From Asticcacaulis excentricus (GTDB lineage: Bacteria; Pseudomonadota; Alphaproteobacteria; Caulobacterales; Caulobacteraceae): DNA of 64,000 nt. The notes under the pieces are model-generated. The model was not told where the DNA came from. It was given only the letters and a program-made list of their open reading frames with translations, and searched no databases. This document shows, one piece after another, positions 15,213 to 36,138 of this stretch. The translations under genes were made by a program, and so were the position numbers. Numbering within the stretch: the first letter of the stretch is position 1; every line of letters begins with the position of its first letter. The stretch is from NCBI RefSeq assembly GCF_003966695.1, contig NZ_AP018827.1, positions 496,001 to 560,000 of the forward strand, in the 5' to 3' direction.

Positions 15213-15260
15213 GGATTGAAAATCCGCGTGTCGCTGGTTCGATTCCGGCTCCAGGCACCA
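15213..15260 (+). pseudogene. 3' fragment of tRNA-Phe(GAA)
   Basis: From GGATT (15213) the sequence follows a bacterial tRNA-Phe: anticodon loop TTGAAAA with GAA at 15218 to 15220, variable part CGTGTC, T-arm GCTGG-TTCGATT-CCGGC, 3' acceptor strand TCCAGGC, discriminator A and encoded CCA. The 5' half is absent; the sequence to the left is phage. It is therefore an attachment-site remnant, and the intact tRNA gene should lie to the left of the window. Confidence 0.8.
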
Positions 15261-15262
15261 TT
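15240..15262 (+). repeat. att site copy 1 (23-bp direct repeat)
   Basis: The 23 bp covering the end of the T-arm, the acceptor strand, CCA and two following T residues are identical to 35955 to 35977. The core reads ggctccaggcacca. This is the left boundary of the mobilizable element and the right boundary of the prophage; an integrase gene begins 160 bp to the right. Confidence 0.85.
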
Positions 15263-15424: not shown

Positions 15425-16648
15425 ATGCCTCTTTCCGACGCTACCGTCCGTTCTGCAAAGCCAACAGGCAAGGCTTTTACGATCTACGATGAGCGGGGAC
15501 TTTTCCTTCAGGTCTCTCCATCCGGCGCCAAGCTGTGGCGTCTAAAATACTCGTTCGGCGGCCTCAGGAAGCTTTTGGCTCTGGGACGTTACCCTGAAAC
15601 GGGCCTGAAAGACGCCCGCACCAAGCGTGACGAAGCTCGTGAGCTTTTGGCAAAGGGGATTGACCCAAGCGTAGACAAGAAGCGCAAAAAGGTAGCCGCC
15701 GACATTGCCAATGCCACGACATTCAAGGCGGTGGCCGACGAGTATATGGACAAGATCGAGCGCGAAGGGATTGCCGAGGCGACACGAAAGAAGACTCGCT
15801 GGCTGGCATCCCAATTGGAAAAAGACATCGGAAGCCTGCCGATTGCCGACATCGAGCCCTACGAGGTCCTGGCGGCGTTGAAAAAGATCGAGCTTCGGGG
15901 CAACCATGAAACCGCCAAGCGCGTCCGCTCTTTTGCCAGCCGCGTCTTTACCTATGCTATCATCACGTCTCGCGCACGGATTGATCCAGCGGCCTCCCTA
16001 GGCGGCGCACTGATTACGCCTAAGGTCAAGAACCATGCGGCCATCGTTGATGCAAGAGGGGTCGGGGGGCTGCTCAAAGCGATCGAAGGATATGAAGGGT
16101 ATTTGACGACCAAACTGGCTCTCAAGGTCATGGCGCATCTGTTTGTACGCCCTGGAGAACTTCGTCACGCCGAATGGCCAGAGTTCGATTTTGAATCCAA
16201 GGTCTGGCGCATACCCGCTGCGAAGACGAAAATGCGCAGCGAACACGTTGTCCCTTTAAGCGTCCAGGTGTTGGACATACTCAAAGAGGTCCAAGGTCTA
16301 ACGGGCGACGGGCGCTATGTGTTCCCATCGGTGAGGTCCGGCAACACACCAATGTCAGAGAATACACTAAACGCAGCTTTGCGAGGCATGGGCTACGGGC
16401 AAGATCAAATGACCTCCCACGGCTTTCGCAGCACGGCCAGCACCCTGTTGAATGAAAGCGGTAAATGGTCGTCTGACGCTATTGAACGCGCGCTCGCCCA
16501 TAAGGATAGTAACAAGATACGGGGCACCTATCATCGCGGCACTCATTGGGATGAGCGTGTCAAGATGGCGCAATGGTGGTCCGATTATCTGGACATTTTA
16601 CGCGACGGTGGCAAAGTCATCGCCTTGCGACGCGGGGCTCAAGGATAA
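15425..16648 (+). CDS. tyrosine integrase (DUF4102/P4-type)
   Basis: 407 residues. The N-terminal arm-binding domain (residues 1 to 95: LSDATVRSAKPTGKAFTIYD, LWRLKYSFGG, LALGRYP) is of the DUF4102 type, followed by a core-binding SAM-like domain and the catalytic domain from about 200. The catalytic residues are visible: Arg in FVRPGELRHAEW, HGFRSTAS supplying His and Arg, and Tyr369 in RGTYHRG. It is complete and should recombine the tRNA-Phe 3' end next to it. It closely resembles the integrase half of the fused gene at 36139; both have Tyr369 and both sit just right of the same att sequence. Confidence 0.92.
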   Translation: MPLSDATVRSAKPTGKAFTIYDERGLFLQVSPSGAKLWRLKYSFGGLRKLLALGRYPETGLKDARTKRDEARELLAKGIDPSVDKKRKKVAADIANATTFKAVADEYMDKIEREGIAEATRKKTRWLASQLEKDIGSLPIADIEPYEVLAALKKIELRGNHETAKRVRSFASRVFTYAIITSRARIDPAASLGGALITPKVKNHAAIVDARGVGGLLKAIEGYEGYLTTKLALKVMAHLFVRPGELRHAEWPEFDFESKVWRIPAAKTKMRSEHVVPLSVQVLDILKEVQGLTGDGRYVFPSVRSGNTPMSENTLNAALRGMGYGQDQMTSHGFRSTASTLLNESGKWSSDAIERALAHKDSNKIRGTYHRGTHWDERVKMAQWWSDYLDILRDGGKVIALRRGAQG

Positions 16649-16709: not shown

Positions 16710-17216
16710 TCACCCGCATCTGTAAATGTATCGGGTGCCGCCAAGTAGAATTTCTTCATATTCAACGCTGAGGTCGCGGGCGATGGCCTCATAATCGATG
16801 TAGTTTCGCAATGGCTCAGGTATCTCGCCATAAAGCCCCTCTTCGATAAACTGCGCGGCCAAGTCGGCTATGCTATCAGCTGGGTATAGGTTAACCTCGT
16901 ACTGATGGGGCGCGTCGTCGCCGAGTGTGAATTTATAACCGGCCTCGCCCACGGCGATGATTACCTTGATTTTGTCGTCGTCGCTCCAGTCGGTCACGGC
17001 TTCAAGGAAGGCCGCATGGTTCGCTTGATTGACGCCCAGGGCCTCGAACATCTTGGCGTCTAGGTATTCGCCTTCGATGAACTGGATTTCAAACTCTTCG
17101 ACGGGCTGGCTATAATCGTTTTTCAGCTTCGCGGCCTTTGCGGAAAATTCCGACGCAGTGTTGAAATAGAACCCTGACGCGGTGATGTCGTAGGGCTGGG
17201 CAAACAGTGTGGTCAT
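16710..17216 (-). CDS. ardA: antirestriction protein ArdA
   Basis: 168 residues from the ATG at 17216, preceded by AGAGGGA; a longer frame would add an unrelated N-terminus. The sequence is strongly acidic and matches alphaproteobacterial ArdA proteins: TTLFAQPYDITASGFYF at the start, VEEFEIQFIEGE, NQANHAAFLEAV and a C-terminal end in RYIYRCG. ArdA is a DNA-mimic dimer that blocks type I restriction-modification enzymes as an element enters a new host. It is transcribed divergently from the restriction-like operon at 17586, so the element carries both an offensive and a defensive function. Confidence 0.85.
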   Translation of the reverse strand: MTTLFAQPYDITASGFYFNTASEFSAKAAKLKNDYSQPVEEFEIQFIEGEYLDAKMFEALGVNQANHAAFLEAVTDWSDDDKIKVIIAVGEAGYKFTLGDDAPHQYEVNLYPADSIADLAAQFIEEGLYGEIPEPLRNYIDYEAIARDLSVEYEEILLGGTRYIYRCG

Positions 17217-17585
17217 TGAAAATCCCTCTTTGGCTTTGGGTTGCGCATAGCAACCCTTGGCTCCCGCCGAGGGTGGGGGTAGCAAACGCAAGGGCGATCA
17301 AAGCCGAGGGGTATCACCCGCCTGCACAGAGCGCAGCGAAGGAAGGCAGGGGATACGGCCTTGGTCGTTCATCGAAGACCCTTGCTTGCGCGAGGGGCAA
17401 CGCCCCTTAGGTCTATCCGCGAGACGCTCTATGCGTGTAGACTCGATCATCGACACCCTATAGGCTTTGGCTCCTATGAGGGTTCGCGTGGATTCGCATT
17501 GGGGGTAGATTTCGAGACAACATTGTTCGCTCTGAGTATAATAATTCAAATGAACATCATCAATCGTTCTTTATAGAGATCAACT
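17217..17585. promoter_or_regulatory. divergent control region between ardA and the defence operon
   Basis: 369 bp without a credible gene. GGGTTGC (17238 to 17244) pairs with GCAACCC (17250 to 17256) to give a perfect 7-bp hairpin in the ardA leader. The right half is AT-rich, with GAGTATAATAATT at about 17539 giving a plausible -10 for the operon, about 45 bp before its start. No tRNA or repeat array is seen. Confidence 0.35.
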
Positions 17586-20500
17586 TTGCCGCGTATATTT
17601 GATAATATTGATAAAACCCTTCTGCCAGAATTAAAGAATATTCTGGATGTTTCCAATCGCGCCGATTTTTGTGTTGGATATTTCAACTTGCGTGGTTGGC
17701 GTCAAATTGACGATAAAATCGAAACATGGTCTGGGCAAGGCGGTAATGCGTGCCGATTACTCGTAGGTATGCATCAGTCACCCGAGAGAGGGCTTCGCGA
17801 GAAACTTACAGCCGCCATACATGATGATGGCATCGATAACGCGCGCGTTCTTGAGCTAAAAAAGGGACTTGCAGAGGAGTTTAGGGCACAACTGGCTCTC
17901 GGAACTCCAACCAACGCCGACGAGGCAGGTCTACGACGTCTCGCCCGCCAGATTCGGGCTAAGAAAGTCGTTGTTAAGCTATTTCTTAGGCACCCTCTTC
18001 ATGCAAAGCTATATCTCCTTCATAGACCCGACCCCGTGAACCCTAAAGTCGGATTTGTCGGCAGCAGCAACTTGACTTTCGCTGGCTTGGCGTTTCAGGG
18101 GGAGCTGAATGTCGATGTAATGGATCATGATGCCTGTGACAAATTGGCGACGTGGTTCGAGGCGCGGTGGAATGACCGCTGGTGCATTGATATATCGGAT
18201 GAACTTGCCACAATCATTGAGGAGAGCTGGGCTGGCGAAGCATTGGTTCCGCCCTACCATGTCTATCTCAAGATTGCCTATCATCTCGCCCAAGAGGCAC
18301 GACTTGGGCAATCGGAGTTCAGGATACCTGCCATTTTTGGCGATAAACTATTTGATTTTCAAACCAGCGCCGTAAAGGTTGCGGCCCATCATCTAAACAA
18401 GCGCGGCGGCGTCGTGATTGGCGACGTGGTCGGTTTGGGCAAGTCGATCATGGCATCGGCGCTACTAAAGATACTCGAAGACAGCGATGGCCGTAGCCTT
18501 ATAATTTGCCCTAAAAACCTTGTCGAAATGTGGGATGATTATGTCGAAACCTACAATCTTTCTGCCAAAATAGTCTCGCTTTCCCGCGTGGAAAGCGAAC
18601 TACCGGAACTTCGCCGCTATCGAACAGTTCTGATCGATGAAAGCCATAACCTGCGCAATCGCGAGGGTAAGCGTTACAAGGTAATTGAGGATTACATTCG
18701 CTCCAATGATAGCCAGTGTATCCTGCTATCCGCTACTCCATACAACAAATCGTTCATCGACCTTTCCTCCCAACTTCGACTTTTTATCGAAGATGATCAG
18801 GATATTGGCATCCGACCGGAAGCGATGATACGCGCTATCGGTGGTGAAACCGAATTCGTCCGCAAACACCAATGCGCGGTACGCTCAATTCCGGCCTTTG
18901 AAAAAAGTGACCAGACTGATGATTGGCGAGAGCTGATGCGCCTCTATATGATCCGCCGAACACGCGGCTTCATACTTCAGAACTACGCCCAGACGGATGA
19001 CGTCAGCGGGCGAAAATTCATCACCTTCTCCGATGGCCGCCGTTCGTATTTTCCTGTGCGTCAGCCTAAATCTGTCAAGTTCGCAATCAATGACTCCGAC
19101 CCCAATGACCCATACGCGAAAGCCTATTCCGATGCAGTGGTGTCGGCAGTGGATGGGCTCAAGTTACCGCGCTACGGGCTTGCCAATTACCTGAACCCAG
19201 ACCCTGCACATCCTCCGACCCCCGCTGAAGATGCAATCATGGACGGGCTCGGGCGTGCCGGAGTCCGGCTAATGGGCTTTTGCAAAACCAATCTGTTCAA
19301 GCGGCTTGAAAGTGGTGGTCCGGCGTTCATTCAGTCGCTGCAACGCCACATAATGCGCAATCTTGTCTTTCTTCACGCGCTAGAAAATGAATTGCCCGTG
19401 CCAATTGGAACCCAAGACGCAGAGTTGCTCGACGTATCGGACGAGGACGCAGATTCCGAGGCTGCCGATACGCTGTTTGCCAACGGTGAATATGGCGAAG
19501 AAGGAGTAGAAGCAGAGCCGACATTCGACGAGTTGGAAAAATTGCGTGAGCAGGCCGCTCTGATCTACGGCGTTTATAGCAATGCAAAGAAGCGTCGCTT
19601 CAAATGGCTGAAAGCCTCACTCTTTAAAGGGAGTTTGCAAACCGCCTTGCGAGCAGATATCGACGCCCTGCGCGAGGTGTTGCGTGTTTGTGGGACCTGG
19701 GACGAAGCTCGCGACAGCAAGTTAAAGGCATTGATCGACCTCGTCCGCGTAGATCACCCAACCGGCAAGTTTCTGATATTCACCCAATTCGCTGACACTG
19801 CGCGCTATCTTGAGGCCGCACTGCGGAAGGCTGGAGTTACAGCCGTTTCCGCAGTCACCGGACAGTCCGAAAACCCTACTCGCCTTGCATGGCGATTTAG
19901 TCCCAGGTCAAACAAAAAGGAAAAGGTCGCAGAGGCAGAGGGGGAATTGCGCGTGCTTATTGCCACCGATGTGTTGTCCGAAGGCCAGAACCTTCAAGAT
20001 TGCGCAACTATCGTCAATTTTGACCTGCCCTGGGCGATCATCCGCTTAATCCAACGTGCGGGCCGAGTGGACCGAATTGGCCAACAGGCCGACACTATCA
20101 ATTGCTACTCGTTCCTTCCGGCCGATGGTGTTGAACGGATCATCCGACTTCGCGCACGCGTCCGTGAGCGCTTGAGGGAAAATCAGGAAGTTGTAGGTTC
20201 GGATGAGGCGTTCTTTGAGGATGATAGCAAGGAGAACCCGATCCAAGACCTTTACAGCGAAAAATCAGGTGTACTCGACGGTGACGACGATGGCGAAGTC
20301 GATCTAGCATCTTATGCGTTTCAGATTTGGCAAAACGCGATTACCGCAGACCCCAAGCTGAAGAAGTTGGTCGAGGATTTGCCCGATGTGGTTTTCGCGA
20401 CCAAGGCCGTGCCGCCGGTTGCCGACGCAAAAGAGGGCGCGCTAGTTTACATTCGCACCCCTGATGATAATGACTCACTTGCTTGTATGAGCCGAGAAGG

Positions 20501-20975
20501 TGAGATTTTGACCCAATCGCCGCTTGCCATCCTGCGGGCCGCCGAATGTTTGCCCGACGAGCCGCCGCTGGAACGCTCCGATTTTCACCATGAAATCGTG
20601 CGCAAGGGTGTCGAGCACTTGATGCAGGAAGAGCGCACCACTCATGGCGCACTTGGGCGCCCGTCCGGCGCGCGATTCAAGACGTATGATCGCCTCAAGC
20701 GGTTTCTTGAGCAACAGGGCAATGAACGCAACCTGTTTTTCACCGATCATTTCGTGCGCGATGTCGAAAAGGCCATGGGCGACATTTACGAATATCCAAT
20801 GTTCCAATCGACTATCGACACTTTGAATCGGCACTTAAAATCCGGGATCAACGATCAAAAGCTTGCAGAAATGGTGGTGGCTCTCCGCGAGGACGGGAGG
20901 CTCTGCATGAAGCAAGACAAGGACGAGGCGTCCAGTGAACTTCGAATTATCTGCTCAATGGGCTTGAAGGGTTGA
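17586..20975 (+). CDS. PLD-nuclease/SNF2-type helicase defence protein
   Basis: 1129 residues starting at TTG 17586; no good ATG or GTG lies nearby and the first residues PRIFDNIDKTLLPEL look native. Residues 20 to 200 form a phospholipase-D-like domain with HAKLYLLH near 139 and VGFVGSSNLTFAG after it, giving a single HxK...SSN site. From about 250 there is a superfamily 2 helicase: Walker A GDVVGLGKSI near 279, DESHNL near 351, LLSATPYN, and the C-terminal lobe with QRAGRVDRIGQ near 821. PLD-helicase fusions occur in phage-defence loci next to methylases, where the helicase probably scans DNA and the PLD site cuts it. It overlaps or abuts the methylase gene, so they form one operon. Confidence 0.85.
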   Translation: MPRIFDNIDKTLLPELKNILDVSNRADFCVGYFNLRGWRQIDDKIETWSGQGGNACRLLVGMHQSPERGLREKLTAAIHDDGIDNARVLELKKGLAEEFRAQLALGTPTNADEAGLRRLARQIRAKKVVVKLFLRHPLHAKLYLLHRPDPVNPKVGFVGSSNLTFAGLAFQGELNVDVMDHDACDKLATWFEARWNDRWCIDISDELATIIEESWAGEALVPPYHVYLKIAYHLAQEARLGQSEFRIPAIFGDKLFDFQTSAVKVAAHHLNKRGGVVIGDVVGLGKSIMASALLKILEDSDGRSLIICPKNLVEMWDDYVETYNLSAKIVSLSRVESELPELRRYRTVLIDESHNLRNREGKRYKVIEDYIRSNDSQCILLSATPYNKSFIDLSSQLRLFIEDDQDIGIRPEAMIRAIGGETEFVRKHQCAVRSIPAFEKSDQTDDWRELMRLYMIRRTRGFILQNYAQTDDVSGRKFITFSDGRRSYFPVRQPKSVKFAINDSDPNDPYAKAYSDAVVSAVDGLKLPRYGLANYLNPDPAHPPTPAEDAIMDGLGRAGVRLMGFCKTNLFKRLESGGPAFIQSLQRHIMRNLVFLHALENELPVPIGTQDAELLDVSDEDADSEAADTLFANGEYGEEGVEAEPTFDELEKLREQAALIYGVYSNAKKRRFKWLKASLFKGSLQTALRADIDALREVLRVCGTWDEARDSKLKALIDLVRVDHPTGKFLIFTQFADTARYLEAALRKAGVTAVSAVTGQSENPTRLAWRFSPRSNKKEKVAEAEGELRVLIATDVLSEGQNLQDCATIVNFDLPWAIIRLIQRAGRVDRIGQQADTINCYSFLPADGVERIIRLRARVRERLRENQEVVGSDEAFFEDDSKENPIQDLYSEKSGVLDGDDDGEVDLASYAFQIWQNAITADPKLKKLVEDLPDVVFATKAVPPVADAKEGALVYIRTPDDNDSLACMSREGEILTQSPLAILRAAECLPDEPPLERSDFHHEIVRKGVEHLMQEERTTHGALGRPSGARFKTYDRLKRFLEQQGNERNLFFTDHFVRDVEKAMGDIYEYPMFQSTIDTLNRHLKSGINDQKLAEMVVALREDGRLCMKQDKDEASSELRIICSMGLKG

Positions 20976-20977
20976 AC

Positions 20978-23900
20978 ATGGTAATCGACAGGCCCCGCGC
21001 CACCATCCATCTCAAAGCTTTCGACTTCGCAAAGTTGTTCATCGAAGAACTGGGCTGGGATCGCCCGTCATCCCGGCAGCCAGAAATGGTCGAGGCTGAA
21101 GGTCTCCAATTCGCTCTCGCCCCTGTGGCAGACAAACGTGGTGTTCGCATTTTCCATTGCCCCGCCATACCCGAGCGCAACACCCGCCAGCGCATTGAGC
21201 GCGAGATCACGAAGCGCGCCTACGAACACCTGATCATTTTCACCGACCCGGCGAAGACCAAACAAGTCTGGCAGTGGGTGGCCCGTGAAAAGGGCAGGCC
21301 AGCGGCGTTCCGCGAACATACCTGGCTTTCAAGCAGTGCACCCGATGCGCTGATCCAGAAGCTGGATCACATCGCCTTTGCTCTCAGTGACGAAGAGGGT
21401 CTAACCCTTGCCGGGACCACGCGGAAGCTCGCCGACGCATTTAATCGCGAAACAATCACAAAGCGGTTTTACGAAGCCTTCAAGAAGCAGCACGACCAGT
21501 TCCTTGGCTTCATCGATGGGTTGGGCAGTGTTTCAGACCGGCAGTGGTATGCATCGCTGATGCTCAACCGCTTGATGTTCGTCTATTTCATTCAGAAAAA
21601 ACGGTTTCTGGACGGCGATATCGACTATCTGAAAAACCGCTTGGCACAGGTTCGCGCGGCCAAGGGCACCGACCAGTTCCACAGCTTCTACCGAGCGTTC
21701 CTGCTCAAGCTGTTCCATGGTGGCTTGGCAACCGCTGTTCATTCACGCGATCCGGAAACGGCCAAATTGCTGGGCACCATCCCCTATCTCAACGGCGGGC
21801 TATTCGAACCCCACGCGCTGGAGGCCGATGGCAACACTATCCAGATTGCCGATGCGGCATTCGAAGGCGTGTTCAACTTCTTCGATCAGTATGAATGGAC
21901 CCTCGACACCCGTCCCATCGAACAGGCCGATGGCAAGGAGATCAACCCGGACGTTCTGGGCCATATCTTCGAAAAATACATCAACCAGAAGCAGATGGGG
22001 GCCTACTACACCAAGGAAGACATCACAGATTACATCACCAAAAACACGGTGGTGCCTTGGCTGTTCCAGAACGCCATCTCCAATGACAAAGTGGCGTTTG
22101 AGGCGGGCGGCTATGTCTGGCGGCTTCTGTCTGATAACCCCGATGCCTACATCCACAAGTCAGTCCGGCATGGCACCGACAGTGATCTTCCGGCAAACAT
22201 CGCGGCGGGCATCGATGATGTTACGCAGCGCATGGATTGGAACAAGACCGCACCGCGCGAATACGGCCTGCCCACAGAAATCTGGCGTGAAGTTGTCGTG
22301 CGCCGCGGACGCTATGAATCCATCCGCGCCAAGGCCGCTGGCGGAGAGATCACGCGGATTGAGGATTTCATCACCCACAATCTGGATATCCGGCAGTTCG
22401 CCCGCGACGTGATCCAGTATGCCGAAAGCCCAGATCTGGTGCGGGCATTCTGGAAAGGCATTTCGTCGATCAAGATTCTGGACCCCGCCTGCGGTTCAGG
22501 CGCGTTCCTATTTGCCGCGCTTAATATTCAGTATGACCTGTATGACGCCTGCCTTGAGCGCATGGAGCAATTCGTTGCCTCTGCACCTGATAGCGGCGGC
22601 GGACGTGGGCAGGTCTATTCTGATTTCCGCACGGTTCTGGCGCAGGTGGCGCAGCACCCTAATCGCGACTATTTCATCTACAAATCGATTATTATCGCCA
22701 ATCTTTATGGCGTTGATATCATGGATGAGGCGGTCGAGATTTGTAAACTCCGTCTTTTCCTGAAACTGGCCTCGCAGCTTGAAAACCCGGACCAGATCGA
22801 GCCGCTGCCGGACATCGATTTCAACATCAGGGCGGGCAACACCCTAATAGGCTATACCTCCATAGCCGATGTGAAAAAGGCGACCGAGGCCACAGGCTTC
22901 GATTTCGATGATCGCGCCGGGAAAATTGAAGCAGCGGCGCAAGACCTTGATCAGGCATTCCGTTTGTTCCGAGAGCAGCAGACCACGCTGCACGGCGGCA
23001 TCCAGGTCGAGCACAAAACTGAACTGCGCAGGCGGCTTGGAGCACTGGAGAGCCAGCTCGACCGGTTTCTGGCAAAGGATTATGGCGTTGACGTTGGCGA
23101 CGACCTCGCCGCTTCGGCCAAATTCCTGACTTGGAAAGCCAGCCATAAGCCGTTCCATTGGTTGATAGAGTTCTACGGCATCATAGACGACGGTGGCTTT
23201 GATGCAGTCGTTGGCAATCCCCCCTACATCGCTTCGAATAAAGTTGGCTATCTTTCCAAGCTAGAACAGGGGGAGCGCTTTCCAGACATTTATGCTTACA
23301 TCTTATTGCGGGCACAGGATGTGACGGCAAAAGATGGGCGATGCGGAATGATTGTCCCTCTGTCATTAACGTTTAGCGAGGACTTTTCGGGCTTGCGGGA
23401 TAGACTGCGCGGTTCGGCTTGGTATTCATCTTTCGACAATATTCCTGCGGCCGTTTTTACTGGCGTAAGTCAACGATGCACGATCTGGATTTCCAGTCCG
23501 GATGGCACCGATGTTTATGTCGCGCCGATGTATCGATGGCGGTCCGCAGCGCGCCCTCATCTCGTCGATACAATCACATTCACCCAATTGAAAAATTTGA
23601 CGCCCGGAATACGAGGCATTCCGAAGGTAGCATCGACGGGTAGCCTTACGACACTGAATGCAATTTGCGATTTGACACGCAAGCGGAGGCGCGAGATTTT
23701 TGCGAGTGGTCGCGTCGGGGGGGCACGTCTTGGATTTTCTCAAGCTGCCAGAAATTTTGTGTCAGTTTTTCGCCAAGATCCACCTTGCCTCGATGCGAAC
23801 AGTTATCGTCCGATTGCCTCGTCAGAAATTGGGGGTCTGAAACTAGCTTCTGAAGAATTAGCTTATGCATCAAAAGCGGCGCTACTTGGAGAGTTGTATT

Positions 23901-24421
23901 TTTCGTTTTGGCTAAGCCAGGGCGATGGATTTCATGTTACGGTAGGAGTTATAAAAGACTATCTGAATTCACTTGCTTTCGTCGAAGATCAAGTGATTTC
24001 CGACCTGGCCTTATTAGGCTTGGCGATGCACGAACAGCGAGGTTCCGCGCTAGCATTCAAAAAGAACGCGGGAAAGTTTGTAGGAAACTACAATTTTCGC
24101 TCCCTACACGCCCTGACACGGCGCGCCGATCTCATATTGATGCAGGGATTAGGGTTAACCCCACAGGTCTCGTTGGGAACCTTCGACTATGTGCAACGTG
24201 TGCTGGCCACCAACCCTTTCGCAGGGGAAAAGGGCATACCGGATGGACTTCGAGATTCACTTGACGAACTGACCGTGGTCGCTGTGGATCGATCAGACGA
24301 CTTGCGGCGGATCGATAACGGTCTTCGCGACTATTTGAGTATGTCGCAGGCTTCATACGACTTCCTATTGAACCGTGATGTTGTGCTGATCGAGGGCGTA
24401 GACGAGGCCGATGCCGAGTGA
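20978..24421 (+). CDS. Eco57I-type adenine DNA methyltransferase with specificity region
   Basis: 1147 residues from ATG 20978 (GAAGG seven bases upstream); a TTG at 20972 overlaps the helicase stop but is too close to the ribosome site. Adenine-N6 methylase motifs are clear: LDPACGSGAFL near 502 (AdoMet binding), DPAC..GVDIMDEAVEICK after it, and VVGNPPYIAS near 745 (catalytic NPPY). The C-terminal quarter (about 880 to 1040; 23640 to 24100) is visibly more AT-rich than the rest and probably contains the target-recognition domain. I see no PD-(D/E)xK nuclease in the N-terminus, so cutting is probably supplied by the partner helicase-PLD protein. PglX of BREX is of related build, but no brxC or pglZ is present. 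Confidence 0.88.
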   Translation: MVIDRPRATIHLKAFDFAKLFIEELGWDRPSSRQPEMVEAEGLQFALAPVADKRGVRIFHCPAIPERNTRQRIEREITKRAYEHLIIFTDPAKTKQVWQWVAREKGRPAAFREHTWLSSSAPDALIQKLDHIAFALSDEEGLTLAGTTRKLADAFNRETITKRFYEAFKKQHDQFLGFIDGLGSVSDRQWYASLMLNRLMFVYFIQKKRFLDGDIDYLKNRLAQVRAAKGTDQFHSFYRAFLLKLFHGGLATAVHSRDPETAKLLGTIPYLNGGLFEPHALEADGNTIQIADAAFEGVFNFFDQYEWTLDTRPIEQADGKEINPDVLGHIFEKYINQKQMGAYYTKEDITDYITKNTVVPWLFQNAISNDKVAFEAGGYVWRLLSDNPDAYIHKSVRHGTDSDLPANIAAGIDDVTQRMDWNKTAPREYGLPTEIWREVVVRRGRYESIRAKAAGGEITRIEDFITHNLDIRQFARDVIQYAESPDLVRAFWKGISSIKILDPACGSGAFLFAALNIQYDLYDACLERMEQFVASAPDSGGGRGQVYSDFRTVLAQVAQHPNRDYFIYKSIIIANLYGVDIMDEAVEICKLRLFLKLASQLENPDQIEPLPDIDFNIRAGNTLIGYTSIADVKKATEATGFDFDDRAGKIEAAAQDLDQAFRLFREQQTTLHGGIQVEHKTELRRRLGALESQLDRFLAKDYGVDVGDDLAASAKFLTWKASHKPFHWLIEFYGIIDDGGFDAVVGNPPYIASNKVGYLSKLEQGERFPDIYAYILLRAQDVTAKDGRCGMIVPLSLTFSEDFSGLRDRLRGSAWYSSFDNIPAAVFTGVSQRCTIWISSPDGTDVYVAPMYRWRSAARPHLVDTITFTQLKNLTPGIRGIPKVASTGSLTTLNAICDLTRKRRREIFASGRVGGARLGFSQAARNFVSVFRQDPPCLDANSYRPIASSEIGGLKLASEELAYASKAALLGELYFSFWLSQGDGFHVTVGVIKDYLNSLAFVEDQVISDLALLGLAMHEQRGSALAFKKNAGKFVGNYNFRSLHALTRRADLILMQGLGLTPQVSLGTFDYVQRVLATNPFAGEKGIPDGLRDSLDELTVVAVDRSDDLRRIDNGLRDYLSMSQASYDFLLNRDVVLIEGVDEADAE

Positions 24422-24947
24422 TCCGCCCTCCCAGCGCGGCAATGCGGCGTTGCTGGCGGGCCAGCCCATCGCCTTTTTCTGCTCGCAGTCCTGCCCCGGC
24501 GACTTGATTCTTAAAGCGCAGGATTGGGCCAATTCTCGCGGGCCAGATGCCACACCTGTGGTAGGAGGCTTGCAAACAACAGCCGAGCGTAACGTGCTGC
24601 GCGTCTTGTTGCGCGGCGGCACGCCGATCATTCAAGTGCTAGCCTGGGCTCTTAATGAGGCGCTCGTGCCTGCAACACTCCGTAATGCCGAAAACGCAGT
24701 GCGCGCGCTGATCGCTTCCTCATTCACAGTCTCCTTTTGTCAGAACACTGCCCGGAACGCTGACCCGCGCAACCGCTACATCCTAAGTTTCGCCGCCATT
24801 ATTCTGTCCGCCCACGCCTCCCCCGGGGGCAAAGCTGAAACCCTTGCCACTAGGGCGATTGCTCGAAGCATCGCGATAGAAACCCTCAATTCTCCCGCCA
24901 ATACCAACAAAGTGGTTCTATGCGCGTTGATAGGAACGGTGCAATGA
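24411..24947 (+). CDS. SLOG/DprA-like Rossmann protein in the defence operon
   Basis: 178 residues beginning inside the methylase stop region (11-nt overlap) and ending in an ATGA overlap with the next gene. The sequence follows the DprA/Smf (SLOG) nucleotide- or DNA-binding fold: PIAFFCSQSCPGDLILKA, VVGGLQTTAERNVLRVLLRGG, then PRNRYILSFAAIILSAHAS-type strand and GGKAETLATRAIARSIAIETL, paralleling RNR...G...V.VVEA..GS..TA..A of DprA. In defence loci SLOG proteins may bind nucleotide signals or single-stranded DNA. The exact family is not known to me; the fold call is from pattern alignment by eye. Confidence 0.6.
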   Translation: MPSDPPSQRGNAALLAGQPIAFFCSQSCPGDLILKAQDWANSRGPDATPVVGGLQTTAERNVLRVLLRGGTPIIQVLAWALNEALVPATLRNAENAVRALIASSFTVSFCQNTARNADPRNRYILSFAAIILSAHASPGGKAETLATRAIARSIAIETLNSPANTNKVVLCALIGTVQ

Positions 24948-25681
24948 GCGAGAAAGCCGATTTCAACGCAATCCCAGCCGAAATCCTTACTGACATCCGC
25001 AAACGCGCAAAGCTCTTGTGGCCAGATGATCGCGAGTGGCAAGAGGATTTCATCACGCTGGAGGCGAATAGCTACGCGGCGTTTCAAGAAATGGATTTTT
25101 CCAATGCAGCTCTGGTAAAGGACGACATAGTCACCCAAGCAATGGAATATTTCGAAAGCTGGGAAGAGCGGGCATCGCACGTTGAGAGCGAGATAGACGC
25201 TTATGCTCAAATCGCCACGACAGCACCGGACGATATCCCACCGGATGTAATCAGCAAGATGAAGCAGGACATTGCGACCGAAGACGATTGGTTCGCTATG
25301 CAGTTGGACAGCTTGCGCAGGGCCATCGACGGCTATCGCTACGTCCGAGACACCCGTGAAAAGGTCGGGCCGATCCGTGAGTTGCTGGTCCGCATGGAAG
25401 GGATCATCGGAAAGGAATGCTATAACGGCAATATCCAGAACTACAGCTCTTGGGGTGAATGGGATGGCGAAGGTCGCTCGTTCCGCTACCCCGTTACATT
25501 CATCCGTAAAGGAGTTGCAGAGAAATGCCACACCGGTTTCGCCGCTTTGACGCACGAGGAACTTATCACCGGCTACTACAAGTTCGGCGCGAATGAATTG
25601 AGCATTTATCGTGCGCTAATGCAGGTCATCGAGATGTTGGAGTCCGAATACGGATTTGTGCGGCCCGATTCGCGCGGTTGA
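24944..25681 (+). CDS. unrecognised protein of the defence operon
   Basis: 245 residues from ATG 24944 (ATGA overlap with the SLOG gene), which argues for co-translation. It is soluble and acidic, with a helical N-terminal two-thirds (ILTDIRKRAKLLWPDDREWQ, EYFESWEERASHVESEIDAY, DSLRRAIDGYRYVRDTREK) and a short beta-like C-terminal part (NYSSWGEWDGEGRSFRYPV, GFAALTHEELITGYYKFG). I recognise no nuclease, methylase or toxin motif. Genomic coupling suggests it is a subunit or regulator of the restriction-like system. Confidence 0.65.
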   Translation: MSEKADFNAIPAEILTDIRKRAKLLWPDDREWQEDFITLEANSYAAFQEMDFSNAALVKDDIVTQAMEYFESWEERASHVESEIDAYAQIATTAPDDIPPDVISKMKQDIATEDDWFAMQLDSLRRAIDGYRYVRDTREKVGPIRELLVRMEGIIGKECYNGNIQNYSSWGEWDGEGRSFRYPVTFIRKGVAEKCHTGFAALTHEELITGYYKFGANELSIYRALMQVIEMLESEYGFVRPDSRG

Positions 25682-25699
25682 AGGTAAAATGGGGTGGCT

Positions 25700-26108
25700 T
25701 GGGGAAGCGTGGTTCCGGGAATGAGCAAATCGGCCTGTCCAGAGCCTATATAGAATTGCGCCCAGTACCATTTCAATCGGCACGATTGCGCAATTGACAG
25801 CATTAACCTAAATGCGGCGCTCGACTGTTTCGAAAAGAAGACGTGTTCTTTGATCGTTTCCCCGTTCACTGCCACGGTGCGGAAGCCCACCCGCCCGCAT
25901 AACTGCGGAGCCAAACAGGTATACCCTCAAGCTTGGTGCCAGCGTCGTCCTCGCTCACGCATCATTGGACGGAAAACCGCAGCTGGCGTACGAGGCAAAA
26001 TCGCTGGGCCTACCCATCTTTACCTTGCCATCGCCATCCAAGTCTAATCTACTCGCCGTAGGGCTGAAATCTTTTCCGATGAGCGGCAGTAAGAAAGCAA
26101 AGATATAA
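25700..26108 (+). pseudogene. decayed second SLOG/DprA-like gene
   Basis: This stretch holds no intact gene, but pieces in different frames align with the second half of the SLOG protein at 24411. One frame gives SLIVSPFTATVRKPT, parallel to ALIASSFTVSFCQNTA. After a shift of frame around 25885 to 25910 another gives PNRYTLKLGASVVLAHAS, parallel to PRNRYILSFAAIILSAHAS, then GKPQLAYEAKSLGLPIFTL parallel to GKAETLATRAIARSIAIETL, ending at TAA 26108. Further stops (for example TGA near 25795) break the N-terminal part. It looks like a paralogue lost by several indels just before the DUF262 gene. Confidence 0.5.
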
Positions 26109-26117
26109 GGGGGCCGT

Positions 26118-27818
26118 GTGGCAAAAGCAGAAGCATCAGTTGAAGAACTTGTAGGCATGGTAGAGCGCGGGGAGCTGCGTTTGCCAGAGATGCAGCGGCA
26201 GTATGTCTGGCGGTCTCCGCGTGTTCGCGATCTCCTTGATTCATTATATCGCGGTTATCCATCGGGTGCGATTCTGCTATGGGAGACAGATGAACCTGTT
26301 CCACTGCAAGATATGGCAATTACACAGGCAGCTAATCCCTATGCCGCCACGCGCCTGCTGTTGGATGGTCAGCAGCGGCTGACGTCGCTTTCAGCGGTCA
26401 TTCGTGGCGAACCTGTGAAAGTCAGGGGGCGGGTCAAGCCGATCGAACTGCTGTTCAACCTTGAACACCCAGAGCGGCAGGAAATCATCACGGAAGTTGA
26501 TGAAGACGCCGACGACGAAGCGACCGAGATGGACGAGGCAGATTCGACCGAGGATGAGCTTCAGCGCCGGTTTGAGCGAATGACTTTTGTTGTGGCCACC
26601 AATAAGCTCGCCGCTCTACCTCAGTGGGTGAAGGTTTCTGAGGTCTTCAAGAGTGACAGTGATACGAGCTTTTTGAAGGGGGCGGGCATCGTTGGTTTCG
26701 ATGATCCGCGCTATGAAAAGTACAGCAAGCGTCTCGCCCAGCTTCGCCGTATTCGCAAATACGTTTATCGGATGGACGTGCTAGAAAGGTCACTTACCTA
26801 TGAGGAAGTGACCGAGATATTCGTGCGCGTAAACTCGTTGGGCGCGAAGCTGCGCAGTTCCGATCTGGCGCTGGCACAGATCACGGCCAGGTGGCGGCAC
26901 AGCCTTGAAGTTTTCCAAAAATTTCAGGCTGAATGCGCCAAGTTGGGTTTCGAACTGGACCTTGGCATTCACCTTAAAACCCTCATCGCCTTCGCCACCG
27001 GGCAGTCACGGTTTCTAACCGCCGGGCGGCTTTCGCTCGATGTGCTGCAAACAGCCTGGAAAGTGGCAACCGAGGGAATGCGGTTTGCCATCAACTTCCT
27101 CAAAAGCAATGTTGGGATCGACAGCCCGGCTCTGCTGTCTTCCCCTTTCCTGATGATTGTTGTGGCCTATTTCGGCCATGCTAAGGGCTACGCATTATCA
27201 CCCGAAGAATCGGACCGTTTGCGACAGTGGGCATTGTTAGCCAATGCCAAGGGCAGATTCTCACGCGGCTCCAGTGAAACAATTCTCGATCAGGATTTGA
27301 GCATCATCTCGAAGGGCGGATCAGCCGATGCGCTCATTGACCGGGTACGGCTGCAATTTGGCAGGCTTAACATTACGCCCGAAGACCTTGAGGGTCGCGA
27401 TCAGCGAAGCTCGCTATTCAAAACGATGTTCCTTACCTTTCGGGCCCTCGGTGCAAAGGACTGGACGTCAAATCTACAAATCTCGCTAGATCATTCTGGC
27501 TCACAACATCGGCTCCAATTCCACCATTTCTTCCCAAAGGCGCTGCTAACCAAGAACGGATTTTCGTCTCGTGAAGCAGATGATATTGCCAATTTGACTT
27601 TCATTGGTGGTCGCACCAATCGTAAGATCAGCGACAAGGCTCCATCTGTTTATCTCGCCGATTTTATGGCCAAGCAAGGGCCTGGGTTGCTTACGTTACA
27701 AAGCATTCCCTCGGACCCAAAATTGTTCGATGTAGGAAGATATCGGGAATTCCTTGCTGCGCGCCGCGTGCTTCTGGCGAAGGCCCTCAATGAATTTCTT
27801 GGCGTGTCGGGCGAGTAA
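26118..27818 (+). CDS. DUF262 protein with C-terminal HNH-like (DUF1524) nuclease region, GmrSD-like
   Basis: 566 residues from GTG 26118 with AAGGGGG just upstream. The N-terminal DUF262 (ParB/sulfiredoxin-like) domain shows LPEMQRQYVWR, LLDSLYRGYPSGAILLW and LLLDGQQRLTSL, the last resembling the nucleotide-binding DGQQR motif of GmrS. An acidic insert (EVDEDADDEATEMDEADSTE) follows. Near residues 470 to 530, QFHHFFPKALL and NLTFIGGRTNRKISDKAPS match the H..FP...N..I.....N..I.D..P pattern of the DUF1524/HNH nuclease half. Proteins of this build act as type IV-like restriction enzymes or NTP-dependent nucleases. It lies 9 nt after the decayed SLOG gene and ends the defence block. Confidence 0.8.
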   Translation: MAKAEASVEELVGMVERGELRLPEMQRQYVWRSPRVRDLLDSLYRGYPSGAILLWETDEPVPLQDMAITQAANPYAATRLLLDGQQRLTSLSAVIRGEPVKVRGRVKPIELLFNLEHPERQEIITEVDEDADDEATEMDEADSTEDELQRRFERMTFVVATNKLAALPQWVKVSEVFKSDSDTSFLKGAGIVGFDDPRYEKYSKRLAQLRRIRKYVYRMDVLERSLTYEEVTEIFVRVNSLGAKLRSSDLALAQITARWRHSLEVFQKFQAECAKLGFELDLGIHLKTLIAFATGQSRFLTAGRLSLDVLQTAWKVATEGMRFAINFLKSNVGIDSPALLSSPFLMIVVAYFGHAKGYALSPEESDRLRQWALLANAKGRFSRGSSETILDQDLSIISKGGSADALIDRVRLQFGRLNITPEDLEGRDQRSSLFKTMFLTFRALGAKDWTSNLQISLDHSGSQHRLQFHHFFPKALLTKNGFSSREADDIANLTFIGGRTNRKISDKAPSVYLADFMAKQGPGLLTLQSIPSDPKLFDVGRYREFLAARRVLLAKALNEFLGVSGE

Positions 27819-27976: not shown

Positions 27977-28012
27977 ATGGCACTTGGTTACATTCGCAAC
28001 CTACATGGATAG
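27977..28012 (+). pseudogene. possible truncated start of a serine recombinase gene
   Basis: A textbook ribosome site (TAGGAGGTG) precedes ATG 27977, which encodes MALGYIR and then loses similarity (NLHG, stop at 28012). MALGYIR is the usual beginning of resolvase/invertase serine recombinases, which continue with VST..Q. The break falls at about 27997, three bases before the relaxase stop codon on the other strand, so this may mark a recombination joint. Seven residues are weak evidence. Confidence 0.35.
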
Positions 28013-30775
28013 GCCTTTCGTCGTGTGAGTTGTCGCAATGCCTGCGTCTGGGTTGACAACCTGGCTCAAGGAGCTCTGGGCCTGGCCTGACCGTTCGTGT
28101 ATGCCGCGTATCAGCTTATCGCGGTCGTCGGTGTAAATCACGGCCTCAGCCTTGGCGCGGGAAATGCCGACATAGAGGACGCTCTGGTCGATCAGGTTCG
28201 TCCGATTGCTTTCAAAATGGATGAAGGCTCGTTCCGCCGTCTGTCCCTGGGCGGCATAAGCAGTCTGCACATAGGCATGGCGTATATGCTGGTCGGACGC
28301 CTCATGGATAAACAGGGTGACGGTCTTCCCGCGCTCGGTCTCGATCGTGACGGTTTCCTGGTCGGGGTCCACCTTCGTCACCTCGGCCTTCAGACCATTT
28401 ATACGGGCCTGGGCGGCATTGTTGCGGGTGAACTCGATCCTGTCCCCAGCGCGCAATTCGCGTTGCTGGCCCTGGAACACTTCGACGCTGCCCCATGATT
28501 CAGGCAGCCAGTTTCGCTCCTGGCCGTGTCTGTCTCGAAGCGCGACTGTCCCTTTGTCGGCATCAACCCGCGCCACATCAAACGCAGCACCTCGCTCGAT
28601 GCCATGCGCGCGTTCGGCCTTGTTGAATATCACCACGTCGCCGGTTTCATAGGCCTTGGCTTGCATGATCTCGGCCTTGGTCATGTCCTTTTGGTTCAAG
28701 GTGCGCATGGTTATGGCCTGACTGCCAAACTCACCTTTGTCTGCCAAGGCGGTTCTGATCCGATCTGTCAGCAGGTCGCGGCCTTCGCGGGATGGGTCAA
28801 TGACAATGGTCTTGCGCCGCTCGTTCGGGGCCAAGCCTGCGTAGGCGCCAGCTATGGCCGCCATACGGTCGGAGGCGCTGGAGTGCTCCATCACACGGCC
28901 ACCGCCGCGATCAAGCGCATCAAGAGCCAGTTTCGCTTGACCCTTTATGGAATGCTCGACGGCCTCAAGCGTCAGTTCGTTGGTCTGGCGTACGATCTTT
29001 TCCAGCTTGAACGTCGGCATTCCGGCCTCCTGTAGCTGTCGGAAGGCCGCACCCGCACCGACGGAGTTTAACTGTTTGTAGTCGCCGACGAGAACCGTCT
29101 TTGCCCCTCGCTGTTCGGCGGCCTCCAGTAGACGGGTCATGTCCCGCGCCGAAATCAGGCTGGCCTCGTCAACGAGCCAGATTTGCCGGTCATTAGTTTT
29201 CGGCTCAGTTTGTCGCTCCATCAAACGTAGATGACGCTCAACAGTAACGGCGGGCACGGTCAGGGCATCGCCAAGCGTCTGTGCTGCCGACGCGGACGGG
29301 GCCATTGCCTTGATGTCAAATCCCGCTGCCTGCGCCGCGTCCGCGAACGTCGTCAACACCGTCGTCGTCTTCGCCGTCCCGGCATAGCCCTGGATGGCGG
29401 TAACGGCATGGGTACTTGTCAGCAACCCTTTGGTTGCCTGCCTTTGGTCATCCGTCCAGCCAAAGCCCTGATCCTCAGAAGATCGGGCGGCGGTCGCTAC
29501 GAGCTCGGCGGCCTTGATAGGGGCGGCGACTGCCTCGGCCCCGTGCCTGCCGCGCATTTCGGCGTTCAACACGCGCTGCTCATAGTCGAGATTGGCGCGG
29601 GTGGTGTAGCCTTGACCCTCGCGGCCCTGGCGGTTGACGAAGGTGCGAGGCACGAGCTCGCCGCGCTCAACGGCCTGCGCCATTGCCCCGCGAATGACGG
29701 CATTGTCCACCTTTCCCATAGCGAAGCGACCAGCCTCCTTCTGGAGGTCAACACTGGAAAACACCGCTTGGCGCTCACCCAATTTGTTGTGGGCGAATGC
29801 CACCGCAGTATGCGCCAGGGCTTCGGCTTCGCCCTTTATGAGGAGTGATCGCCGGTCATCTTCGGCAAGATGCTCCGCCGCATGGACAAGGCCCTGGCGC
29901 TTGGCCTGGTCGAAACCAAGTTCACCGGCCCTGTCGCGCCAACCGTGCACCAGACCGGCGCGGTCGATCTCGCCTTTGGCCTCGCGGGTGTCCAGGGCGG
30001 CGATCTGCTTTTCCTCGGCGGACGCGGAAGCGCGGTCCTTGCCGCGCGCTCCAAGATGTTTCTCGATCTGCGACGACCGCTCGCTGAAAGCCAGCAATAG
30101 GTCCCGGCTCAAACCCTTGATCTCAAAATTCGAGTCCTTGCCGACCTCGATCTTGTAACCCAGGCGAACAACCCGGTGTGCCAATTCCTGTCGGTAAATC
30201 TCTCCTGCGGCTTTCTGGATTTGGTAGAGGGGACGGGATTCGAGACTACGCCAATTGCCGCCCTCGTCCTGGGTCATATTCAATATGACATTATGGGTAT
30301 GAAGTTGCGGGTCTTCCTCCCGGCTGGTCTGGTGCAGGAAGGACCCTATGACCAAATTGCCTGTTTGGACGTGCTCCACGCCATCTTTGCCCCGAACGCG
30401 GGCCTCGGCGGCGAACTCCTCGATGAACGCTATCGTCACTGAGGCGGCCTTGGCATGGGCTTCAACAAGACGTTCGTCTCCCGCCACCAAGGCCATGACT
30501 GAAACCGATTTCGGTGCCGAAAGGGTCAAGTCCCAACCAGGTCGATGCTCAAGCACATCGGACTTGTTGGTCCCCAAGGTCGTGCCATCGGTCAGCTTGC
30601 CTTCCAGCAACGCCTTGAACCTGTCGCGGTCAACTTCGCCCTTCAGGTCAAGCGCTTTGGCCCCTTCGCCCTGCCATTCAGACGGCGACACTCCGCCCTC
30701 GGTATAATAGTCGTCGGCTTCAAAATAGGTGGCGGCCTGACCCGAGCTGCGGATCGCGGATACGGTCGCGACCAT
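28001..30775 (-). CDS. MobF (TrwC/TraI-type) relaxase-helicase
   Basis: 924 residues from the ATG at 30775 (TGATG overlap with the coupling-protein gene); a longer frame from 30811 would overlap it further. The relaxase domain shows the N-terminal tyrosines (YFEADDYYTEG) and the metal-binding three-His motif with DPQLHTHNVILN. The second half is a superfamily 1 helicase with Walker A GYAGTAKTTTV near 462, VDEASLI, and the C-terminal AYAAQGQTAERAF. It would nick oriT, stay covalently bound and unwind the strand for transfer. The protein is complete; with traD and the accessory gene it forms a mobilization operon read leftward. Confidence 0.9.
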   Translation of the reverse strand: MVATVSAIRSSGQAATYFEADDYYTEGGVSPSEWQGEGAKALDLKGEVDRDRFKALLEGKLTDGTTLGTNKSDVLEHRPGWDLTLSAPKSVSVMALVAGDERLVEAHAKAASVTIAFIEEFAAEARVRGKDGVEHVQTGNLVIGSFLHQTSREEDPQLHTHNVILNMTQDEGGNWRSLESRPLYQIQKAAGEIYRQELAHRVVRLGYKIEVGKDSNFEIKGLSRDLLLAFSERSSQIEKHLGARGKDRASASAEEKQIAALDTREAKGEIDRAGLVHGWRDRAGELGFDQAKRQGLVHAAEHLAEDDRRSLLIKGEAEALAHTAVAFAHNKLGERQAVFSSVDLQKEAGRFAMGKVDNAVIRGAMAQAVERGELVPRTFVNRQGREGQGYTTRANLDYEQRVLNAEMRGRHGAEAVAAPIKAAELVATAARSSEDQGFGWTDDQRQATKGLLTSTHAVTAIQGYAGTAKTTTVLTTFADAAQAAGFDIKAMAPSASAAQTLGDALTVPAVTVERHLRLMERQTEPKTNDRQIWLVDEASLISARDMTRLLEAAEQRGAKTVLVGDYKQLNSVGAGAAFRQLQEAGMPTFKLEKIVRQTNELTLEAVEHSIKGQAKLALDALDRGGGRVMEHSSASDRMAAIAGAYAGLAPNERRKTIVIDPSREGRDLLTDRIRTALADKGEFGSQAITMRTLNQKDMTKAEIMQAKAYETGDVVIFNKAERAHGIERGAAFDVARVDADKGTVALRDRHGQERNWLPESWGSVEVFQGQQRELRAGDRIEFTRNNAAQARINGLKAEVTKVDPDQETVTIETERGKTVTLFIHEASDQHIRHAYVQTAYAAQGQTAERAFIHFESNRTNLIDQSVLYVGISRAKAEAVIYTDDRDKLIRGIHERSGQAQSSLSQVVNPDAGIATTHTTKGLSM

Positions 30776-34355: not shown

Positions 34356-35021
34356 ATGCAATTAACAAATTTGCCACACACTAAAGATTTTGCATCTGTC
34401 GAGAGATTTTTACAAACGGAACGTCTATCTAGGTACTATGCTGCGTCAAAGGGAAATAAAACTAAAGCATTTGCTCATTATATATGGAATTGTGATCTAT
34501 CTCAATATTTCTATATACCTCTTCACTTCGCTGAAATAGGGAGTAGGAACGCAATAAATCTGGCTCTAATTGCGAATCTTGGGCCCTTATGGTTTTCAAA
34601 TTCAAATTTTGTGGCGATGCTCGATCCACGTTTTAGCACTGAGCTTGGCAAAGCAATTCAGGATGAAACGAAACAGCACGGCGCATCTCTCACCGCACAT
34701 CACATCGTTTCCGCCTTAACATTTGGCTTTTGGGAGCACCTCCTGACAAAACGATTTGACCGTTTACTCTGGAACAAAGGCATCGCGCTGTATTTCCCCG
34801 GCGCCCCCGCCGCCCTTTCAAGGGAGGATTTAAGAACAAGCATTGAGGGTGTGCGGAGATGGCGAAACCGGATCGCTCATCATCGCGCGATTTTCGATAA
34901 ATCGCCTTCTAGAAAATACCAACAGGTCGTCGAGCTCATAATGTGGGCTTGCCCAACGACGTGTGCTTGGGTGAAATCAGTGACGCCCGTCCACACGATT
35001 ATAAACCAGCGCCCTAAATGA
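34356..35021 (+). CDS. Abi-like/HEPN-type phage-defence candidate
   Basis: 221 residues. It resembles short Abi-like proteins: FLQTERLSRYYAASKG, YIWNCDLSQYFYIPLHFAEIGSRNAIN, GFWEHLLTKRFDRLLW, and near the end RRWRNRIAHHRAIF. The last contains an R-x4-H arrangement like the catalytic site of HEPN ribonucleases, which cut RNA in abortive infection or toxin-antitoxin systems. The gene is much more AT-rich than its surroundings, suggesting recent transfer. No antitoxin-like gene is adjacent on the same strand; the convergent neighbour at 35071 is a candidate partner. Confidence 0.65.
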   Translation: MQLTNLPHTKDFASVERFLQTERLSRYYAASKGNKTKAFAHYIWNCDLSQYFYIPLHFAEIGSRNAINLALIANLGPLWFSNSNFVAMLDPRFSTELGKAIQDETKQHGASLTAHHIVSALTFGFWEHLLTKRFDRLLWNKGIALYFPGAPAALSREDLRTSIEGVRRWRNRIAHHRAIFDKSPSRKYQQVVELIMWACPTTCAWVKSVTPVHTIINQRPK

Positions 35022-35954: not shown

Positions 35955-35977
35955 CGATTCCGGCTCCAGGCACCATT
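35955..35977 (+). repeat. att site copy 2 (23-bp direct repeat)
   Basis: Identical over 23 bp to 15240 to 15262, ending in the tRNA-Phe acceptor strand, CCA and TT. To its left there is no further tRNA similarity, so it is the right boundary of the mobilizable element and at the same time the left boundary of the next integrase. The remainder of the gap 35692 to 36138 contains only the hairpins listed below. Confidence 0.85.
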
Positions 35978-36089: not shown

Positions 36090-36101
36090 GGGGTCTTTTT
36101 G

Positions 36102-36135: not shown

Positions 36136-36138
36136 AAA

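What the first reader, a model, noticed from the sequence alone, without database searches (positions are those of the whole stretch)
17586..27818. Restriction-like defence block: PLD-helicase, Eco57I methylase, SLOG protein, unknown protein, DUF262/HNH
Four genes overlap start-to-stop and a fifth follows after a decayed gene. The set lacks the marker genes of BREX (brxC, pglZ), DISARM (DUF1998) and classical type I systems (hsdR/S). A PLD-helicase with an Eco57I-type methylase suggests that methylation marks self and the helicase-nuclease attacks unmodified DNA. The SLOG/DprA-like protein and the 245-residue protein have no obvious role in known restriction systems, so the complete set may be an uncharacterised variant. 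PLD-helicase/methylase pairs have been reported as restriction-like defence; the novelty is in the extra partners.
Basis: partly seen in the sequence, partly recalled or inferred. Interest (0 to 1): 0.75.

Follow-up and report, generated by a model that had tools for sequence, protein, structure and literature searches.

The report
Restriction operon with DprA-like third gene
A mobile element in this bacterium carries a DNA-cutting defence operon in which a nuclease-helicase and a methylase are joined by a DprA-like protein that may restrain the cutter, and by a small unnamed protein whose relatives also sit inside several other kinds of restriction operon.

Summary
The genes are real and placed as described. 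Four (17586-25681) overlap or nearly touch: a PLD-SNF2 nuclease-helicase, an Eco57I/type IIG-like methylase (MT), a DprA-like SLOG protein and a 245-aa protein (P245). The 'decayed gene' is the 3' remnant of a second SLOG gene, before a DUF262/HNH gene (GmrSD type, PADLOC HEC-05). The helicase-MT pair is an R-M-like core already noted in print (Lactococcus pLd8). SLOG is not an oddity: 8 of 15 helicase-MT cassettes counted here have it, and in 398 sampled genomes of the order it occurs in 3, all among the 4 with the helicase. Its domain matches the PsyrA model and is fused to an HmaB-type methylase elsewhere, so a brake on the helicase-nuclease is the favoured role (inferred). P245 is in only 2 of 15 cassettes, but its domain recurs in type I operons (hsdS-X-hsdR), after a type III res gene and in an MmeI-helicase-GIY operon: an unnamed, probably R-M-associated family. 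DUF262 is more likely exchangeable cargo. The block lies in a 20.7-kb element between 23-bp tRNA-Phe-end repeats. Verdict: new variant of R-M-like defence; mechanism inferred, nothing assayed.

The parts
15240..15262 (+). left 23-bp direct repeat (tRNA-Phe 3' end), element boundary
   Evidence: third copy with one mismatch at an intact tRNA-Phe 39.4 kb to the left
15425..16648 (+). tyrosine integrase of the element
   Evidence: Pfam Phage_integrase 2.7e-22
16710..17291 (-). ArdA-like antirestriction gene
   Evidence: Pfam ArdA 5.4e-09
17586..20975 (+). PLD-SNF2 nuclease-helicase, 1129 aa, TTG start
   Evidence: HxK, GSSN and helicase motifs invariant in 13 of 13 aligned
20972..24421 (+). Eco57I/type IIG-like DNA methylase (MT); the start may be the ATG at 20978
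   Evidence: Pfam Eco57I 3.2e-22; PADLOC REase_MTase_IIG 864 bits
24411..24947 (+). DprA-like SLOG protein, 178 aa
   Evidence: PADLOC PsyrA 5.9e-07; homologues
24944..25681 (+). P245, unnamed family with conserved C-terminal domain
   Evidence: (no family)
25854..26105 (+). remnant of a second SLOG gene
26118..27818 (+). DUF262/HNH protein, GmrSD-like, HEC-05 (157 bits); doubtful member of the system
35955..35977 (+). right 23-bp direct repeat, element boundary

Best explanation
The operon encodes an ATP-dependent restriction-modification system. The methylase marks one strand of a short asymmetric site with N6-methyladenine (inferred from its Synechocystis relative). The PLD-SNF2 protein, probably a dimer like SauUSI, is recruited to unmodified sites, moves along DNA using ATP and cuts it with its PLD nuclease (inferred). 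The DprA-like SLOG protein binds the helicase-nuclease, or its DNA, and keeps it from damaging the host, as RqlI does for the RecQ-like helicase RqlH (inferred by analogy). P245 is an optional accessory factor of restriction enzymes, associated with type I, IIL and III systems too; a nuclease-controlling or DNA-binding adaptor is the best guess. DUF262/HNH is a separate GmrSD-like nuclease that travels next to the cassette. Shown: gene order, motifs, conservation, recurrence. Inferred: every biochemical step.
For: 15 loci with an intact helicase-MT pair from several phyla; invariant PLD and helicase motifs in 13 of 13. The MT relative on pSYSX is by elimination M.Ssp6803IV, GA(m6A)GGC, 1446 of 1451 sites methylated. 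SLOG in 8 of 15 cassettes and in 3 of 398 genomes of the order, all among the 4 with the helicase. SLOG domain in a PsyrA beside a PsyrT-type helicase and fused to an HmaB-type methylase. RqlI constrains and interacts with RqlH (PMC4670107 passages). pN/pS 0.12-0.51 for the four genes.
Against: No assay. 7 of 15 cassettes have no recognisable SLOG and pairs without it persist, so it is not essential. The window SLOG matches DprA/PsyrA models only weakly and its structure model is unusable. Without the two genomes whose SLOG was in the query, the order co-occurrence rests on one genome (P 0.005). P245 is in 2 of 15. The MT could hold its own nuclease (the PADLOC model is named restriction enzyme-methyltransferase); its N-terminal ExK-like residues are not invariant in the 13-row alignment, which does not settle it.
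Confidence: 0.55

Rival explanations
1. The helicase and methylase are a complete R-M system; SLOG, P245 and DUF262 are independent defence or mobile-element genes that merely share the locus.
For: Pairs without SLOG exist (7 of 15); P245 in 2 of 15; the slots after the core hold different PADLOC candidates, HEC-05, PDC-S68, PDC-S06.
Against: SLOG in 8 of 15 including distant cassettes (35-42% SLOG identity); translational overlaps; SLOG seen in the order sample only with the helicase.
Confidence: 0.25
2. SLOG is an enzyme or sensor of nucleotides, as in other SLOG families, and triggers cell suicide through the helicase or DUF262 nuclease when phage DNA is met.
For: SLOG superfamily membership (nucleotide binding recalled); conserved GGFHSxxE-like motif in 8 sequences.
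Against: The best-matching model is PsyrA, an antitoxin-type protein (RqlI); no partner of a known nucleotide-signal kind beside it in the window.
Confidence: 0.12
3. The PLD-helicase works like SauUSI: it attacks DNA carrying a foreign modification, and the methylase serves another purpose.
For: Same order of N-terminal PLD and SF2 motor as SauUSI (PMC7913695 abstract and section 24).
Against: A methylase follows the helicase in all 15 counted cassettes, though such loci were what was counted; SauUSI ends in an SRA domain and no such Pfam hit was seen here.
Confidence: 0.05

Closest known systems
Putative R-M operon orf33-orf35 of Lactococcus plasmid pLd8 (PMC6098607, passages)
   Same: PLD + SNF2 helicase in one protein next to an N6-adenine methylase of type IIG kind; authors propose PLD as the restriction domain
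   Different: No SLOG, P245 or DUF262 mentioned in the passages seen; sequences not compared here
Synechocystis pSYSX helicase-VapC pair-MT cassette (M.Ssp6803IV by elimination)
   Same: Helicase 51% and MT 44% identical to the window proteins; methylation GA(m6A)GGC
   Different: No SLOG or P245; a VapC-type pair between helicase and MT
SauUSI (PMC7913695)
   Same: N-terminal PLD nuclease then SF2 motor in one chain, dimer, ATP-driven translocation
   Different: Type IV, methyl-dependent, SRA reader; no methylase partner
CglI / NgoAVII (PMC4267653 abstract)
   Same: ATP-dependent restriction at an asymmetric site with methylase, PLD-type nuclease (PMC7913695 section 24) and helicase
   Different: Nuclease and helicase are separate subunits
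PsyrTA / RqlHI (PMC4670107 passages)
   Same: DprA-like protein encoded with a helicase; PADLOC PsyrA is the best model for the SLOG proteins
   Different: RecQ-like helicase, no methylase; RqlI is longer with a helix-turn-helix
DISARM, Hma/DUF499 BREX-related systems, BREX (PMC12839542, passages and section 28)
   Same: Helicase plus adenine methylase; an HKD nuclease with Snf2 helicase in one BREX-related subtype
   Different: DUF499/HmaC, BrxC, PglZ and DrmB are not the best match of any of the five proteins

Membership tests
R-M-like system with PLD-helicase and IIG-like methylase (pLd8 type) | PLD + SNF2 helicase in one protein next to an adenine methylase | tested here: met
R-M-like system with PLD-helicase and IIG-like methylase (pLd8 type) | restriction of unmodified DNA and protection by methylation | not testable with these tools
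   needs assays
DISARM | DrmA and DrmB (DUF1998) present | tested here: not met
   not the best PADLOC match of any of the five proteins; helicase hits DrmA only weakly through the helicase domain (2.8e-14)
BREX | BrxC and PglZ present | tested here: not met
   no such hit in the rows shown for the five proteins; PglX matches of MT are to the shared methylase domain
Hma / DUF499 systems | DUF499 ATPase (HmaC) | tested here: not met
   no such hit in the rows shown; helicase to HmaA 1.9e-21 by the motor domain
NF042964 phospholipase D-like anti-phage protein | score above curated cut-off | tested here: not met
   137 bits against 1100
PsyrA/RqlI (SLOG protein) | DprA-like domain | tested here: met
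   PADLOC PsyrA 5.9e-07 window, 8.6e-14 L058, partial match to the profile
PsyrA/RqlI (SLOG protein) | full-length architecture beside a RecQ-like PsyrT | tested here: not met
   window protein 178 aa, matches profile 124-254 of 398; partner is a PLD-SNF2 helicase
GmrSD / HEC-05 (DUF262 gene) | GmrSD_N plus HNH C-terminal domain | tested here: inconclusive
   GmrSD_N met (2.5e-27), GmrSD_C 0.0047 below cut-off; HEC-05 157 bits against 763 and 778 for L048 and L050
P245 in any named family | hit in Pfam, NCBIfam, PADLOC or PHROGs | tested here: not met
   no significant hit for the window protein or six relatives in Pfam and NCBIfam (best NCBIfam 0.0031, far below cut-off)

The most novel reading that the evidence does not exclude
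P245 defines a small, unnamed regulator family that plugs into restriction enzymes of unrelated kinds (type I between hsdS and hsdR, type III Res, type IIL MmeI with helicase, PLD-helicase), and the DprA-like SLOG protein is the antitoxin of the PLD-helicase, so that this R-M system is wired like a toxin-antitoxin pair with two safety devices.
Probability: 0.25. Interest if true: 0.8.

Novelty: new variant of a known kind. Interest (0 to 1): 0.6.

Why it matters
It turns two 'proteins without a role' into testable parts. If the SLOG protein restrains a helicase-nuclease, one DprA-like module would link PsyrTA, an Hma variant and an R-M system, and explain how strong ATP-driven nucleases are kept safe. 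If the P245 domain acts alike in type I, IIL, III and PLD-helicase systems, it would be a common accessory of restriction enzymes overlooked because it is short and unnamed.

Tried and rejected

Rows left out of the 15-cassette count: L061 and L063 (contig ends), L036 and L040 (truncated methylase), L035 and L037 (another methylase clade), L038 (28% identity), L039 (helicase fragment). The 74 distant viral matches L064-L137 were not examined for neighbours (that scan kept 80 of 87). Of 28 plasmid records with a helicase hit, 10 were fetched. The R-M adjacency control used query proteins taken largely from the neighbours of the domain itself and is biased towards the near bin.

Print: nine searches of the open library were made. 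None named P245, which has no name to search for, and a description of this exact gene set was not met; subscription papers are not covered. Papers seen: passages of PMC6098607, PMC4670107, PMC6604393, PMC7296061, PMC6560206, PMC10734518, PMC12715929; passages and section 28 of PMC12839542; abstract and section 24 of PMC7913695; abstract of PMC4267653. The Synechocystis methylome paper behind the M.Ssp6803 names was not read.
Full report
Observation. The SLOG call for 24411-24947 rests on a weak PADLOC PsyrA match (5.9e-07), firmed up by homologues (PsyrA 8.6e-14, Pfam DNA_processg_A 6.9e-06, TIGR00732 dprA 8e-07, the last two below curated cut-offs). The 245-aa gene (P245) has no significant family hit. 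SLOG and P245 share an ATGA; MT and SLOG overlap by 11 bp. Between the window and Sphingobium subterraneum (L015) pN/pS is 0.12 (helicase), 0.38 (MT), 0.51 (SLOG) and 0.32 (P245), with synonymous sites near saturation, so all four look maintained.

The decayed gene. The stretch 25682-26117 contains the end of a second SLOG gene: 46% over 57 residues to the L015 SLOG, found again by profile. In genome G612 (L048) a SLOG gene lies directly before a DUF262 gene. The simplest reading is that this locus once had SLOG-DUF262 and that a SLOG-P245 module was exchanged in between (inference).

The helicase-methylase core. Relatives of the helicase over its whole length were found in 4 of 398 genomes of the order and 4 of 398 of a phylum sample (own genome and G026 in both), at E<=1e-100. 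28 plasmid records matched at E<=1e-30, 20 of them over at least 80% of the query; six viral contigs matched at 48-62% identity, five over nearly the whole protein. In 13 aligned helicases the PLD HxK and GSSN residues and helicase motifs are invariant. In 15 loci with enough sequence a methylase of the same clade follows, directly or after a small toxin-antitoxin pair: window, L015, L047-L051, L058, L059, L060, L062 and plasmids L031-L034. In L035 and L037 (Actinomycetota) the helicase is followed by a methylase of another clade. Such a pair has been noted in print on Lactococcus plasmid pLd8 (PMC6098607 passages).

What the methylase does. Its relative on Synechocystis pSYSX (43.9%) should, by elimination, be M.Ssp6803IV: pSYSX is said to encode M.Ssp6803IV and V (PMC6604393), V is slr6095, and in 1-100900 of 106004 bases the gene table, which can be incomplete, shows only one other DNA methylase, in the type I region. 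M.Ssp6803IV makes GA(m6A)GGC, methylated at 1446 of 1451 sites (PMC7296061 passages). That motif is asymmetric, as is the site of CglI (PMC4267653 abstract). The motif of the window enzyme is unknown; its C-terminal part is diverged. Whether the MT N-terminus still cuts DNA is not settled: the residues that could form an ExK are not invariant.

SLOG. A profile of eight SLOG proteins was run against all reading frames of the loci then held: SLOG is in 8 of the 15 cassettes (window, L015, L048, L049, L058, L059, L060, L062) and in none of the other seven at E<=1e-3. In L049 it follows a 376-aa gene and in L059 a 163-aa ORF and a 396-aa gene; elsewhere it follows MT directly. In the order sample SLOG occurs in 3 of 398 genomes, all among the 4 with the helicase; by chance 4e-07, but 0.005 if the two genomes already in the query are left out. 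In a phylum sample of 357 genomes the profile found, besides the own genome, two genomes at E<=1e-10. G1066 has a PsyrA (561 bits) beside a PsyrT-type helicase; G889 has the domain fused to the N-terminus of an HmaB-type methylase beside an HmaC-type ATPase, and there it matches PsyrA and ShosA (the HmaC neighbour was tested on one of the two G889 contigs). RqlI constrains the genotoxicity of the helicase RqlH, is reported to interact with it, and needs its N-terminal and DprA regions (PMC4670107 passages); that RqlI is the E. coli PsyrA is recalled. Hence the favoured role: a brake or gate on the PLD-helicase.

P245. It is rare: own genome plus one partial hit in 61 relatives, own plus one weak hit in 385 genomes of the class, 4 plasmid records. 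One scan of the genome collection gave 23 loci: ten cover at least 228 residues, thirteen only the C-terminal ~90-107, with the conserved CYNGNIQN...GR.FRYP...FGAN core. Beside helicase-MT cassettes it occurs only in the window and L015. Elsewhere it lies between hsdS and hsdR (L019, L024, L027), before an hsdR-like gene (L023), 3 bp after a type III-type RE_endonuc domain (L006; 'type III' is recalled for that Pfam family), at the end of an MmeI-hypothetical-helicase-GIY-YIG operon (L003, L007, same species), after a GIY-YIG (L021) or HNH gene (L025), and near type I genes (L004 about 0.5 kb, L138 about 3 kb). In the 23 genome loci, 11 of 30 genes within 100 bp (8 loci) are of these kinds, against 3 of 112 at 100-3000 bp, 2 of 89 at 3-6 kb and 0 of 94 at 6-10 kb; the query set came largely from the neighbours, so this overstates the contrast. 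In 14 of the 23 loci no gene of these kinds was found in the sequence held. AlphaFold gives a helical N-terminal part and an uncertain C-terminal domain, without a convincing fold match.

DUF262. The window gene matches HEC-05 with 157 bits; genes after the cassette in L048 and L050 match with 763 and 778 bits and share only 22-26% identity with it. In L015 the slot after P245 holds a PDC-S68 helicase (1560 bits); in L062 the slot after SLOG holds a PDC-S06 ATPase (862 bits). These are PADLOC candidate families, so the slot looks like exchangeable cargo; DUF262 follows in 3 of 15 cassettes, which is also compatible with a loose functional link.

Setting. The block lies in a 20.7-kb element between 23-bp repeats (15240-15262 and 35955-35977) with integrase, ArdA-like gene, TrwC relaxase and TrwB coupling protein. 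A third copy with one mismatch lies 39.4 kb to the left, at the end of an intact tRNA-Phe, and the window part of that interval holds phage structural genes: a prophage and a mobilisable element appear to stand in tandem at one tRNA (inference). G+C is 0.505-0.557 across the block against 0.60-0.63 at the left end of the window and 0.61 at 28001-30000.

Verdict. R-M-like defence core: well supported by anatomy, not assayed. SLOG as a regular third gene: supported. SLOG as a brake: inferred. P245 as an R-M accessory: supported as an association in part of its loci, function unknown. DUF262 as part of the system: doubtful. Novelty: new variant of a known kind.

Noticed in passing
window 15240-35977 and G000:C1:471866-471888: 23-bp repeats of a tRNA-Phe end suggest a prophage and a mobilisable element in tandem at one tRNA; a further integrase (36088-38463) starts just right of the last repeat.
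   Followed up: partly
window 16710-17291 (-): The element carries an ArdA-like antirestriction gene beside its own restriction operon.
   Followed up: no
window 34356-35021 (+): AbiD/PD-T4-5-like gene (PADLOC 6e-14) in the same element.
   Followed up: no
L059 13145-14335: A 396-aa protein joins a domain like the N-terminus of MT to sigma-70 regions 2 and 4, inside the cassette.
   Followed up: partly
L144 3336-7004 and L145 344-3958: SLOG/PsyrA-like domain at the N-terminus of an HmaB-type methylase.
   Followed up: partly
L031 11487-12120 and L033 11473-12106: In two cyanobacterial plasmids a small gene and a VapC-type toxin gene sit between helicase and methylase.
   Followed up: no
L047 8604-9479: A 291-aa protein with a weak second PLD domain (1.2e-05) takes the third-gene position in the cassette of G026.
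   Followed up: no
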